Part shown: positions 12,320 through 15,314 of the stretch, piece by piece
How the letters are laid out: the number at the start of each line of letters is the position of its first letter
How positions within the stretch are numbered: the first letter of the stretch is position 1
Source of the DNA: Phormidium tenue FACHB-886
GTDB lineage: Bacteria; Cyanobacteriota; Cyanobacteriia; Elainellales; Elainellaceae
DNA: 64,000 nt
Direction: 5' to 3'
NCBI RefSeq assembly: GCF_014764505.1
Contig: NZ_JACXWX010000002.1
Location: 62,001 to 126,000 of the forward strand
Notes under the pieces: generated by a model
Told to the model about the DNA's origin: nothing
Database searches by the model: none
The model's input: the letters and a program-made list of their open reading frames with translations, nothing else
Made by a program: the position numbers and the translations under genes

Positions 12320-14863
12320 ATGGACAACGCCGATCGCGTTCAATGGCTGCAGCAGACTCCGCTTGGGTCGCTATCGGCGGAAATTCTAGGAGCGATCGCC
12401 GACCAGATCCAGGTGCAGACGGTTCAGGAAAACCGCCGCCTTGTGCTGGAGGACACTGCTCCCAGCGACCTTTATATTCTTAAGTCAGGGCGGCTAGAAG
12501 CATACCATACTAGCCCCGATAGCCTCGCTAGGAATGCTAGCAGCCTGCTACCTGGCTCAGTGCTGCACCTGAAGGAACTGCTGCTCGATCAGCCAGCCGA
12601 TCAGACGATCGTTACTCTAAGTGACTGTGAGCTGTGGCTGATTTCGCGTGACAGCTTCTTCAAGCTTGTGGAGCAGTACCCCGAAATTAGTCGCACTTTC
12701 TCACGGCAGCTCGCAGAAGAGCTGAATCAGGTGTCAGCGCAGCTTGCCTTTGAGCAAGAACGGCAGGCAGCACTGCGCCCCTATCTGGTGCCCAAAGTGA
12801 AGCAGGGTATTGTGGGAGCGAGCCGTTATGCGGTGCGGCTGCGGCAAGAGATTCGTAAAGCCTCCGGTAGTCACCAGTCTGTTTTGATTTTTGGGGAGCC
12901 CGGGCTAGGAAAAGACAATGTAGCAGCGCTAATTCACTTTGGTTCTGCCGATCGCAAGCAGCCAATTATCAAAATTAACTGCGATACGTTGCAATCCAGC
13001 GGTGCTGAGCTGTTTGGGCGAGCCGGGGGCAAACCAGGCTTGCTGGAATCGTTAGGCAGCGGCACTCTAGTTTTGAACAATATTCAAGATTTGCCGAGGG
13101 AACTGGAAGGCAAGCTGCAGCATCTCCTATCAACCGGAGAATATGTTCCGGTGAGCCGGGAAGGCTCACCTGAGCCAGAGGCGCGTCGCTCGATCGCCCG
13201 CATCCTCATGACCGCCGAGCGCAACCTGCCCAGTATAAACTGCAAGAAAGCAGGAACTCAGATCATTAAAGTTCCTCCTCTGCGGGTTACTAAAGCTGAT
13301 ATCGAAGCCCACGCCAAATACTTCATCAGCCTTTATTGCCGCAGTAGAGGGCTGCCCCAGCCCAGCATCGCGCCAGAAGCTCTACGGCGGCTACAAGGCT
13401 ACGATTTTCCGGGCAATCTCTCGGAACTGTCGGGCTTAGTCGAACGGGCAATTATTCAGTCTAATGATGCGCCCGTGTTGACGGAAGAAGTATTTTGGGC
13501 AACAGGCAGTAGCAAGAACCGCCGCTTCCGGCTCAACTTGCTGAATGCTAATCCGCAGCTGCGATCGTTTCTTCGTAGCCCTTGGTGGCCAGATCGCATT
13601 AACTATGGCTTTACTCTGTGGTTCTTTGCGATCACTATTGCTATCCTCTTTTTCGCGCCCCAGTCCCGCGATGCCAATATTGCTCTAAATCTCTTTTGGG
13701 CGTGGTGGTGGCTGCTAATTCTGGTCGCTTTTCCATTCGTGGGACGGCTATGGTGCTCGGTTTGCCCATTCATGATTTATGGAGAGCTAGCGCAGCGGCT
13801 GTCGCTGCGCTGGTTCCCCCGTAAGCTACTACCCTGGCCCCGACAGCAGGCAGAAAAATGGGGTGGCTGGTTCTTGTTCGGGATGTTTGTCCTGATTTTG
13901 CTATGGGAAGAGCTTTGGGATTTGGAGAACACAGCCTATCTATCGGCTTGCCTGCTGCTATTGATTACTGCCGGGGCAATTATCTTTTCGCTGTTGTTTG
14001 AGCGGCGCTTTTGGTGTCGTTATCTCTGCCCGATCGGCGGCATGAATGGCATGTTCGCCAAACTAGCCATGATCGAACTGCGTGCCCAGCAAGGAATTTG
14101 CGCTGCTTCTTGTACAACCTATCAGTGTTACAAAGGCGGACCCCAGAAAGGGGAGGGCATGGAAACAGGCGGCTGCCCGATCTATTCCCATCCGGCTCAG
14201 CTTGAGGAAAATCGGGATTGCGTTTTGTGTATGACCTGTCTCAAAGCTTGTCCCCATCGATCGGTTGAGTTAAACCTACGCCCACCCGGCATTGAACTCT
14301 GGACGACGCATACGCCTACCTATGCGGAAGTTGCCCTGCTGTTTCTGATGTTTGGGGCAGTGTTTTTACATCGTCTGCCGGAAATCTCCACCAAACTGGG
14401 CGGCTTCCCGTTAAGCAACTTTGGTATTCATGCTGGACTCTCTGTACTAGCGCTCCTAGTTCCAAGCGCGATCGCTCAGCTTGCCCAAGCGCTCAGTCGT
14501 CTATATAGCTCAATGCCCAAGCCCCATACCTTCAAAACGCTCGCCTATGGCTACCTGCCACTGGTACTGGGTGGCAACCTGGCTCATTTCCTGCGGTTGG
14601 GGCTGACTGAGATGGGACGAGTAATTCCCGTGACGCTTGCTACTTTTGGCTTAAGTGGAATGTCAATAGCTGGATTGCAACCCCTGGCGATCGTGGCTGA
14701 TCCTGCCGTTATCTCTTTTCTGCAGGGTACAACTCTAGTCGTCACCGCTCTTCTCAGCATCCTTTTAACTCAAAAAATCGCTCGCCAACCCCTCCGAGTT
14801 CTCTTCCCACAACATCTAGCAACCTTAGGCTTAACAACCTTGATGTGGCAAATTATCGTCTAG
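12320..14863 (+). CDS. chimeric cNMP-binding / sigma54-type AAA+ / polyferredoxin membrane protein
   Basis: 847 residues with GGGAGGGG before the ATG. About 10-145 is a cyclic-nucleotide-binding-like beta domain (DLYILKSGRLEAY). About 165-395 follows sigma54-activator AAA+ domains: FGEPGLGKD (191-199) is Walker A, AELFGRAGGKPGLLE the region after it, and YDFPGNLSEL (361-370) sensor II. The GAFTGA loop is missing and Walker B reads LVLNNIQDL (250-258) instead of LFLDEI. No HTH follows. From about 425 come membrane helices and NapH/NosR-like cysteine motifs CSVCP (479-483) and CRYLCP (566-571). Further cysteines are 594, 598, 603 and 619, and CVLCMTCLKACP (634-645) is a 4Fe-4S site. I infer a sensor coupled to membrane electron transfer rather than a transcription activator. 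Confidence 0.88.
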   Translation: MDNADRVQWLQQTPLGSLSAEILGAIADQIQVQTVQENRRLVLEDTAPSDLYILKSGRLEAYHTSPDSLARNASSLLPGSVLHLKELLLDQPADQTIVTLSDCELWLISRDSFFKLVEQYPEISRTFSRQLAEELNQVSAQLAFEQERQAALRPYLVPKVKQGIVGASRYAVRLRQEIRKASGSHQSVLIFGEPGLGKDNVAALIHFGSADRKQPIIKINCDTLQSSGAELFGRAGGKPGLLESLGSGTLVLNNIQDLPRELEGKLQHLLSTGEYVPVSREGSPEPEARRSIARILMTAERNLPSINCKKAGTQIIKVPPLRVTKADIEAHAKYFISLYCRSRGLPQPSIAPEALRRLQGYDFPGNLSELSGLVERAIIQSNDAPVLTEEVFWATGSSKNRRFRLNLLNANPQLRSFLRSPWWPDRINYGFTLWFFAITIAILFFAPQSRDANIALNLFWAWWWLLILVAFPFVGRLWCSVCPFMIYGELAQRLSLRWFPRKLLPWPRQQAEKWGGWFLFGMFVLILLWEELWDLENTAYLSACLLLLITAGAIIFSLLFERRFWCRYLCPIGGMNGMFAKLAMIELRAQQGICAASCTTYQCYKGGPQKGEGMETGGCPIYSHPAQLEENRDCVLCMTCLKACPHRSVELNLRPPGIELWTTHTPTYAEVALLFLMFGAVFLHRLPEISTKLGGFPLSNFGIHAGLSVLALLVPSAIAQLAQALSRLYSSMPKPHTFKTLAYGYLPLVLGGNLAHFLRLGLTEMGRVIPVTLATFGLSGMSIAGLQPLAIVADPAVISFLQGTTLVVTALLSILLTQKIARQPLRVLFPQHLATLGLTTLMWQIIV

Positions 14864-14934: not shown

Positions 14935-15147
14935 CTAGTCCACAACTTTCAGTAGTCCCATCTGAAGGCGATCGAAAACTTGGCGAATCTGTTGAGCATC
15001 GTGGGGATGAATAGGTGCCCGACTCAGTGCCGCTTTCAAGAGGCACAGCCGATCAACCGTCGTGATCTTGCCAGAAGCCAAAATGCGATCGATCGTTTGC
15101 CTTAATCTTTCTCGAAGTTGGGCAGAGGTCGATGTTAGGGTTATCAT
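14935..15147 (-). CDS. small conserved cyanobacterial protein, unknown function
   Basis: 70 residues. GGAGG lies 6 bases before the ATG at 15147, which favours this start over the ATG five codons upstream at 15162. The chain is predicted helical and soluble, with a patterned core (RLRQTIDRILASGKITTVDR, then QQIRQVFDRLQMGLLKVVD). I recognise this type of short protein from other cyanobacteria but know no function. It is convergent with the chimeric redox gene and divergent from rnc. Confidence 0.7.
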   Translation of the reverse strand: MITLTSTSAQLRERLRQTIDRILASGKITTVDRLCLLKAALSRAPIHPHDAQQIRQVFDRLQMGLLKVVD

Positions 15148-15314
15148 GAGTTGCCTCCACATGGATGGGCTGAAAAGTCAAGGTTTCAGAGCCATAAGCA
15201 TCAGCATCCCTGATCAGCTTCCTTAATGAGATCGTTCATCTGGGCGATCTGTAACAGTTCATACTCTGCTAAAGGGTAGAGGCGATATGATATTGCCCTA
15301 GTTTCATCACCGCT

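What the first reader, a model, noticed from the sequence alone, without database searches (positions are those of the whole stretch)
12320..14863. Chimeric cNMP-binding / degenerate sigma54-AAA+ / polyferredoxin protein
Three modules that are normally separate are fused in one 847-residue frame: a cyclic-nucleotide-binding-like domain, a sigma54-activator-type AAA+ domain and a NapH/NosR-type membrane polyferredoxin. The AAA+ part lacks the GAFTGA loop that contacts sigma54, has LVLNNI where Walker B should have LFLDE, and has no DNA-binding HTH. Cyanobacteria are generally reported to lack sigma54, so it cannot be a normal activator. I infer a nucleotide-responsive switch repurposed to control electron transfer through the membrane 4Fe-4S module. 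Related proteins occur in other cyanobacteria, but their function seems undescribed.
Basis: partly seen in the sequence, partly recalled or inferred. Interest (0 to 1): 0.85.

Follow-up and report, generated by a model that had tools for sequence, protein, structure and literature searches.

The report
Dead-ATPase-headed membrane polyferredoxin of cyanobacteria
A widespread cyanobacterial protein that some records label a nitrogen-gene regulator looks instead like a membrane electron-carrying protein with a worn-out regulator welded to its front, and a sister version sits beside genes for handling hydrogen sulfide.

Summary
The ORF is real (12320-14863, 847 aa) and no join artefact: relatives occur in 242 of 388 class genomes. 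It joins a CRP-like fold without the cyclic-nucleotide ligand residues, a sigma54-activator-type AAA+ domain without its catalytic parts, and a NapH/NosR-like membrane polyferredoxin with an extra C-terminal membrane bundle. In 196 homologues no GAFTGA and no Walker-B Glu was found, while 12 cysteines are invariant. The dead AAA+ domain is under purifying selection (median dN/dS 0.093; Fe-S core 0.045). The genome has no rpoN match. New here: a sister clade keeps the P-loop (GKT, 43 of 44) and lies in sulfide/low-oxygen islands: cysK near 29 of 44 loci against 4 of 106 in the window's clade, rhodanese 15 against 0. Best reading: a membrane redox carrier with a non-hydrolysing regulatory head, not an activator. 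Cluster content, partner, ligand and gating are inferred. The likely Synechocystis counterpart, slr1529 "ntrX" (mapping recalled, untested), has been knocked out in a regulator screen. New variant of a known kind.

The parts
12320..14863 (+). whole gene, 847 aa, ATG start, stop included
   Evidence: homologues aligned over most of the length
12419..12679 (+). cNMP-binding-like (CRP-type) fold, residues 34-120; phosphate-cassette Glu replaced by Leu84 and Arg by Ala93
   Evidence: Pfam PF00027 1.1e-13; alignments to solved PKA and Crp-family chains; counts
12683..12784 (+). long helix, residues 122-155, between the cNMP-like and AAA+ domains
   Evidence: AlphaFold2 model
12785..13492 (+). degenerate sigma54-activator-type AAA+ domain, residues 156-391
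   Evidence: PF00158, PF25601; VpsR and FlrC best chains; Foldseek NtrC1 TMt 0.84
12893..12916 (+). P-loop GEPGLGKD (residues 192-199); GEPGLEKD in 91 of 136 clade-a rows
13007..13060 (+). stretch where the GAFTGA loop should stand; loop absent
13064..13087 (+). Walker B position, TLVLNNIQ: Asn-Asn in place of Asp-Glu
13292..13483 (+). AAA+ lid, residues 325-388; sensor-II position reads GNLSEL (Ser368)
   Evidence: PF25601
13583..14299 (+). NapH/NosR-like membrane polyferredoxin core, residues 422-660: four predicted membrane helices plus ferredoxin-like region
   Evidence: Fer4_5; TIGR02163 53 bits, below its cut-off; models; hydropathy
13754..13768 (+). CxxCP motif, C479 and C482
   Evidence: Cys invariant in 196 of 196 rows
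14015..14032 (+). CxxxCP motif, C566 and C570
   Evidence: Cys invariant in 196 of 196 rows
14099..14251 (+). eight Cys (594, 598, 603, 619, 634, 637, 640, 644), expected ligands of two [4Fe-4S] clusters
   Evidence: invariant in 196 of 196 rows; low model confidence here
14321..14860 (+). C-terminal bundle of about four to five predicted membrane helices, residues 668-847
   Evidence: models; hydropathy, weaker for 738-775 and 829-846; shared with a stand-alone Deinococcus protein

Best explanation
A membrane redox protein, not a transcription activator. The polyferredoxin core passes electrons between the membrane quinone pool and a soluble cytoplasmic partner through two [4Fe-4S] clusters and the CxxCP/CxxxCP site; from the predicted helix order all of these, and the head, face the cytoplasm. 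The head is a pseudo-regulator: a CRP-like barrel and a long helix for dimerisation or ligand sensing, and a bEBP-type AAA+ domain that should not hydrolyse ATP and has neither the sigma54 loop nor an HTH; it acts as a non-hydrolysing collar that sets oligomeric state or gates the clusters. Shown: architecture, conservation, loss of catalytic residues, purifying selection, and the sulfide/low-oxygen gene company of the sister clade. Inferred: cluster content, quinone reaction, topology, direction of electron flow, gating, partner.
For: 12 Cys invariant in 196 of 196 homologues. Positions conserved at 97% or more: 83 of 258 in the membrane/Fe-S core, 23 of 245 in AAA+, 14 of 187 in the C-terminal bundle, 3 of 150 in the N-terminal domain. 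Median dN/dS: Fe-S core 0.045 (40 pairs), AAA+ 0.093 (40), C-terminal bundle 0.113 (40), cNMP-like 0.171 (37). No Walker-B Glu and no GAFTGA in 196 rows, one of which is a fragment without the AAA+ part. No rpoN match. Clade c and five examined clade-a rows lack the cNMP domain, while all 40 proteins scanned keep AAA_lid_14 and Fer4_5, so AAA+ plus polyferredoxin is the core. The C-terminal module exists alone in Deinococcus (30% identity over residues 4-390 of 445) and, more distantly, in haloarchaea. Clade b lies among cysK, rhodanese, TauE, SQR-like, persulfide-dioxygenase-like, cyd, psbA and petC genes. Helix order and loop charges fit Cys on the side of the soluble head.
Against: No biochemistry. 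The NapH-family score (53 bits) is far below its curated cut-off of 213. Foldseek found no PDB match better than E 0.5 for the membrane module. The cluster-binding loop is modelled with low confidence (residues 592-631). Clade a shows no broadly conserved neighbour. The sulfide link is to clade b, not to the window protein itself. Some AAA+ functional residues persist: Arg or Lys at the sensor-II position in 97 of 136 clade-a rows and a finger-like Arg in 84 of 136, so loss of nucleotide function is not complete by sequence.
Confidence: 0.55

Rival explanations
1. A membrane-anchored redox or sulfide sensor: the Fe-S module is the input and the pseudo-AAA+ head the output, binding RNA polymerase, a transcription factor or an enzyme (such as CysK for clade b), somewhat as VpsR works without being a sigma54 activator.
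For: The best solved relative of the head by phmmer is VpsR, which PMC3162934 lists among proteins mistaken for sigma54 activators (passage seen). Clade b is followed by cysK on the same strand within 150 bp in 20 of 44 loci. The head is under purifying selection.
Against: No DNA-binding domain found. The strongest constraint is on the membrane/Fe-S core, not on the head. These data do not separate electron transfer from sensing.
Confidence: 0.25
2. A cofactor or complex assembly factor (CcoG/RdxA-like, recalled): the Cys motifs serve reductive maturation of another membrane complex, and the AAA+ head is a chaperone remnant.
For: NapH/NosR-like proteins can be needed for partner integrity (PMC5928378, passages seen). 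petC, psbA, cyd and hemN genes lie near some clade-b loci.
Against: Those genes form broad low-oxygen islands, so the link is not specific; clade a has little such company.
Confidence: 0.12
3. A true nitrogen-assimilation activator (NtrX type), as some records name it.
For: Name on an Aulosira homologue and on slr1529; AAA+ fold similarity to NtrX structures.
Against: No GAFTGA, no Walker-B Glu, no HTH, no receiver domain in Pfam, no rpoN match.
Confidence: 0.03

Closest known systems
NapH / NosR / RdhC membrane polyferredoxin-type proteins (Fer4_5, TIGR02163)
   Same: four-helix core with two Cys-Pro motifs; NapH and NosR also have two 4Fe-4S motifs (PMC5928378, passages)
   Different: first motif CxxCP rather than CxxxCP; no FMN domain found and no NapG-like neighbour noticed; extra C-terminal membrane bundle; regulatory head in front
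VpsR (degenerate EBP, not sigma54-dependent)
   Same: AAA+ head whose aligned sequence lacks GAFTGA and the Walker-B Asp-Glu; best phmmer chain 7v2b
   Different: VpsR binds c-di-GMP (title of 7v2b) and is a soluble DNA-binding regulator (recalled); this protein is membrane-bound with no HTH, ligand unknown
NtrX / NtrC / PspF sigma54 activators
   Same: AAA+ and lid fold
   Different: no sigma54 loop, no Walker-B Glu, no HTH; no rpoN match in the genome
CRP/FNR family and PKA regulatory subunits
   Same: cNMP-binding fold
   Different: ligand Glu and Arg lost; no HTH found

Membership tests
sigma54-dependent activator (bEBP) | AAA+ fold of the family | tested here: met
   Pfam, Foldseek NtrC1 TMt 0.84
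sigma54-dependent activator (bEBP) | GAFTGA sigma54-contact loop | tested here: not met
   0 of 196 homologues
sigma54-dependent activator (bEBP) | Walker-B Asp-Glu | tested here: not met
   Glu at position 254 in 0 of 196 rows; NN in 134 of 136 clade a; Asp at 253 in 21 of 44 clade b and 8 of 13 clade c
sigma54-dependent activator (bEBP) | arginine fingers | tested here: inconclusive
   Place of one finger read from the FlrC line (Arg nine residues before the Pro): Lys in the window, Arg in 84 of 136 clade a, 0 of 44 b, 1 of 13 c. The second finger was not placed; which Arg are fingers is recalled
sigma54-dependent activator (bEBP) | sensor-II Arg | tested here: not met
   Ser in the window; in clade a Lys 74, Arg 23 of 136; Arg 11 of 13 in clade c; Arg 0 of 44 in clade b; role recalled
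sigma54-dependent activator (bEBP) | C-terminal HTH | tested here: not met
   no HTH family in Pfam; lid runs into membrane helices
sigma54-dependent activator (bEBP) | rpoN in the same genome | tested here: not met
   no PF04552 match in G000 (99.88% complete), 4 of 14 control genomes positive as expected
cyclic-nucleotide-binding CRP family | phosphate-binding-cassette Glu and Arg | tested here: not met
   positions 84 and 93: no Glu or Arg in the 134 clade a/x rows or 43 clade-b rows with a residue there (positions read)
cyclic-nucleotide-binding CRP family | cNMP-binding fold | tested here: met
   PF00027 51 bits over cut-off 27.5
NapH/MauN family (TIGR02163) | score over the curated cut-off | tested here: not met
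   53 against 213.05 bits
Fer4_5 polyferredoxin superfamily | Cys-Pro motifs plus two 4Fe-4S motifs on a multi-helix membrane core | tested here: met
   Fer4_5 over cut-off; 12 Cys invariant in 196; helices. Fer4-type models over the ferredoxin Cys stay under their cut-offs
Fer4_5 polyferredoxin superfamily | bound [4Fe-4S] clusters and quinone reaction | not testable with these tools
   needs spectroscopy
VpsR-like c-di-GMP receptors | c-di-GMP binding | not testable with these tools
   needs binding assay

The most novel reading that the evidence does not exclude
A cyanobacterial family of membrane redox switches in which a catalytically dead enhancer-binding-protein head gates, or reads out, electron flow through a polyferredoxin. 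The sister clade, which keeps its P-loop, would couple a nucleotide signal to sulfide oxidation and cysteine synthesis in anoxygenic or low-oxygen photosynthesis; the window's clade would have lost or changed the nucleotide step.
Probability: 0.3. Interest if true: 0.8.

Novelty: new variant of a known kind. Interest (0 to 1): 0.62.

Why it matters
A gene with relatives in 242 of 388 sampled genomes of its class is named as a nitrogen regulator in some records, although its most conserved part is a membrane iron-sulfur module. Correcting that gives a testable electron-transfer candidate in organisms central to Earth's photosynthesis. The sister clade marks sulfide and low-oxygen islands and offers a handle on how cyanobacteria switch between oxygenic and sulfide-linked metabolism. 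It is also a clear natural case of an ATPase domain kept under selection after losing catalytic residues.

Tried and rejected
slr2059 (Fed9) was considered as the Synechocystis counterpart and dropped: the papers call it a [4Fe-4S][4Fe-4S] ferredoxin. Conserved neighbours of clade a: among 111 loci including the window (30 of them with only about 1.5 kb of flank) the commonest separate gene family was seen in 22, then 20 and 19; among 26 wider loci none in more than 4. RNase III downstream (10 of 111) looks like local synteny. Structural match of the membrane module: Foldseek best E 0.53; VIA-align best Z 5.3, not informative; a known fold is not excluded. Rooting the tree with the Deinococcus protein failed (far too long a branch), so the direction of P-loop change is not settled. 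Neighbours of the Deinococcus, two haloarchaeal and Sulfurovum proteins gave no function. PADLOC matches are to the AAA+ part of RtcR-type regulators (1.5e-23) and the cNMP part of TIR effectors (1.9e-6), that is, to shared domains; a defence role was dropped. Paper searches whose listings showed no description of this architecture: no papers; listings; passages of PMC3162934 and PMC1858693 seen. Other searches: slr1529 and ntrX, slr2059, sulfide, NapH.

Full report
WHAT IS THERE. The reading frame 12320-14863 (+) is open, starts with ATG and encodes 847 residues. Pfam finds, over cut-off, cNMP_binding (34-120), Sigma54_activat (164-303), AAA_lid_14 (325-388) and Fer4_5. Fer4-type models over the ferredoxin Cys are seen but below their cut-offs. 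An AlphaFold2 model from 38 family sequences has mean pLDDT 86.1 and pTM 0.59, so domains are well modelled but their arrangement is uncertain. The AAA+ part matches NtrC1 with target TM 0.84 and rmsd 2.3. Nine helices between 422 and 846 are predicted as membrane or membrane-like. Hydropathy does not support all nine equally: 738-775 and 829-846 are weaker, so the count at the C-terminus is uncertain.

NOT AN ARTEFACT. A search of 386 genomes of the phylum gave matches in 125; 21 of these lie outside the window's class and are partial matches to the AAA+ or the polyferredoxin part alone (counted from its rows). With a clade-b query, 242 of 388 class genomes match at E 1e-100 or better. In the named genome collection 417 stretches encode a relative, of which the best 80 were kept; those 80 are biased towards the window's own clade.

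THREE CLADES. A tree of 109 rows of the membrane module (49 clade a, 43 b, 13 c, 3 x, one Deinococcus) gives b and c full support; a, with x inside it, holds together except for two long-branched rows. It is a quick tree with SH-aLRT only, warns of long branches meeting, and the outgroup is too distant to root it. Clade a holds the window protein. Clade b is about 38-41% identical to it. Several genomes with b also carry a. Clade c falls in family code f19, whose genomes are small (about 2.3-3.7 Mb), and lacks the cNMP domain; that these are picocyanobacteria is inferred. Clade-a rows L146-L149 and L161 also lack it. Three relatives (L232-L234) carry an extra AAA+ unit and are 1121 aa long.

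LOSS OF CATALYSIS, KEPT UNDER SELECTION. In 196 aligned rows (136 a including the window, 44 b, 13 c of which one is a fragment without AAA+, 3 x) none has a GAFTGA-like string. Position 254, the Walker-B Glu, is Glu in none. Positions 253-254 read NN in 134 of 136 clade-a rows; clade b has DN in 17, NN in 9, SN in 6, DQ in 4 and others in the rest of 44; clade c keeps Asp at 253 in 8 of 13. The P-loop is GEPGLEKD in 91 and GEPGLGKD in 33 of 136 clade-a rows and GEPGLEKD in 11 of 13 clade-c rows; in clade b it ends GKT in 43 of 44. Lys198 is kept in 195 of 196. Erosion is uneven and tells partly against a plain 'dead' head: at the sensor-II position clade a has Lys in 74 and Arg in 23 of 136, clade c Arg in 11 of 13, clade b never Arg; a finger-like Arg stands in 84 of 136 clade-a rows but in 0 of 44 clade b. 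So clade a lost P-loop and Walker B and often kept basic residues, whereas clade b kept the P-loop and lost the basic residues; in both, hydrolysis is unlikely. The 12 Cys of the membrane module are present in all 196 rows. In the cNMP domain the positions of the cassette Glu and Arg (84 and 93, read from alignments to solved chains) hold neither residue in any row with a residue there. Nei-Gojobori dN/dS over the first 40 of 46 disjoint pairs (84-97% identical; mostly clade a, with two clade-b and two clade-c pairs) has medians 0.171 (cNMP-like, 37 pairs), 0.093 (AAA+), 0.045 (membrane/Fe-S core) and 0.113 (C-terminal bundle). Two pairs gave identical values (L051/L052, L012/L015) and may be the same genomes from two collections.

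SIGMA54. No PF04552 match in the window's genome; 4 of 14 control genomes ring. In the phylum 11 of 386 genomes have a match at E 0.001 and 2 pass the cut-off. The stronger, in G125, is a ~200-aa ORF with only the DNA-binding domain (62 bits); that genome's clade-a homologue (L018) has GLEKD and NN. The other (G224) is a short borderline match that I did not examine. A 2011 survey reports sigma54 and its activators absent from 29 cyanobacterial genomes (PMC3162934, passages seen).

NEIGHBOURS. Clade a has no broadly conserved partner. For clade b, 44 loci were compared with 106 clade-a loci; median span 19.9 kb (b) and 18.5 kb (a), shorter where contigs end. Families in b against a: cysK 29 of 44 against 4 of 106; rhodanese 15 against 0; psbA 9 against 2; Rieske PetC 9 against 0; nitronate-monooxygenase-like 8 against 0; NifX-like 8 against 0; SQR-like 7 against 0; Tll0287-like 7 against 0; TauE 5 against 0; cydA-like and cydB 5 against 0 each; persulfide-dioxygenase-like 4 against 0; hemN 4 against 0; ArsR 6 against 7, a weak difference. 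cysK follows on the same strand within 150 bp in 20 of 44. Rhodanese, SQR-like, TauE or persulfide-dioxygenase-like genes occur in 22 of 44 against 0 of 106. The 44 rows fall into 30 groups at 85% identity; 16 of 30 have cysK within 400 bp downstream and 11 of 30 a rhodanese. Not every b locus is of this kind: L204, for example, has no such gene among the neighbours listed. Family names come from one representative each: CysK (TIGR01139), PetC (NF045928), HemN (TIGR00538), Rhodanese, TauE, Photo_RC (psbA type) and bd-oxidase subunit II are over their cut-offs; SQR, cydA, persulfide-dioxygenase and HdrA/HdrB names stay below curated cut-offs and are suggestions. 80 of the 106 control loci were picked by identity to the window protein, so the control is not a random sample.

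LITERATURE. slr1529 of Synechocystis is listed as 'nitrogen assimilation regulatory protein' with log2 changes -0.74, -1.17, -0.07, -0.35 and -0.67 at 3, 12, 24, 48 and 72 h of iron starvation (PMC3516471, passages seen), and as ntrX with ratio 0.29 in high copper (PMC4182526, passage seen). Its knockout is among six mutants with the most significant metabolite changes at 72 h (PMC5318462, passage seen). That slr1529 is the counterpart is recalled and supported only by the shared name with an Aulosira clade-b homologue. The CxxxCP motifs of NapH and NosR matter for partner binding and activity, and their chemistry is unsettled (PMC5928378, passages seen). Clustering of sqr with low-oxygen psbA is known in cyanobacteria (PMC5061849, passages seen); the terms 'cyclic nucleotide', 'sigma' and 'cysteine synthase' do not occur in that paper's main text.

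HOW IT MOST LIKELY WORKS. The most constrained part is the membrane Fe-S module, so electron transfer is the most probable retained activity. Head and Cys motifs are predicted on the same side, taken as cytoplasmic, and no extracytoplasmic domain is seen, unlike NosR. I infer exchange between quinone and a soluble cytoplasmic partner, with the head as a non-hydrolysing oligomerisation or ligand-sensing collar. Direction, partner and ligand are unknown.

Noticed in passing
   Followed up: partly
L170, 1459-2067 (-): A stand-alone ~200-aa ORF with a sigma54 DNA-binding domain (62 bits) in one cyanobacterial genome, in a group reported to lack sigma54.
   Followed up: partly
L232, L233, L234: Relatives of 1121 aa with an additional AAA+ unit between the cNMP-like domain and the usual AAA+.
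   Followed up: partly
G342:C8 (L145) and G257:C1: Homologues split over two adjacent or overlapping frames; could be real splits or sequencing errors.
   Followed up: no
L119 / L120 (plasmids of Pseudanabaena galeata and Aulosira laxa): Islands with psbA, petC, cysK and a clade-b gene are carried on plasmids, one typed conjugative, so the trait may be mobile.
   Followed up: partly
window 14935-15162 (-): Small ORF next to the gene on the opposite strand, seen in 8 loci of the set; unknown function.
   Followed up: no
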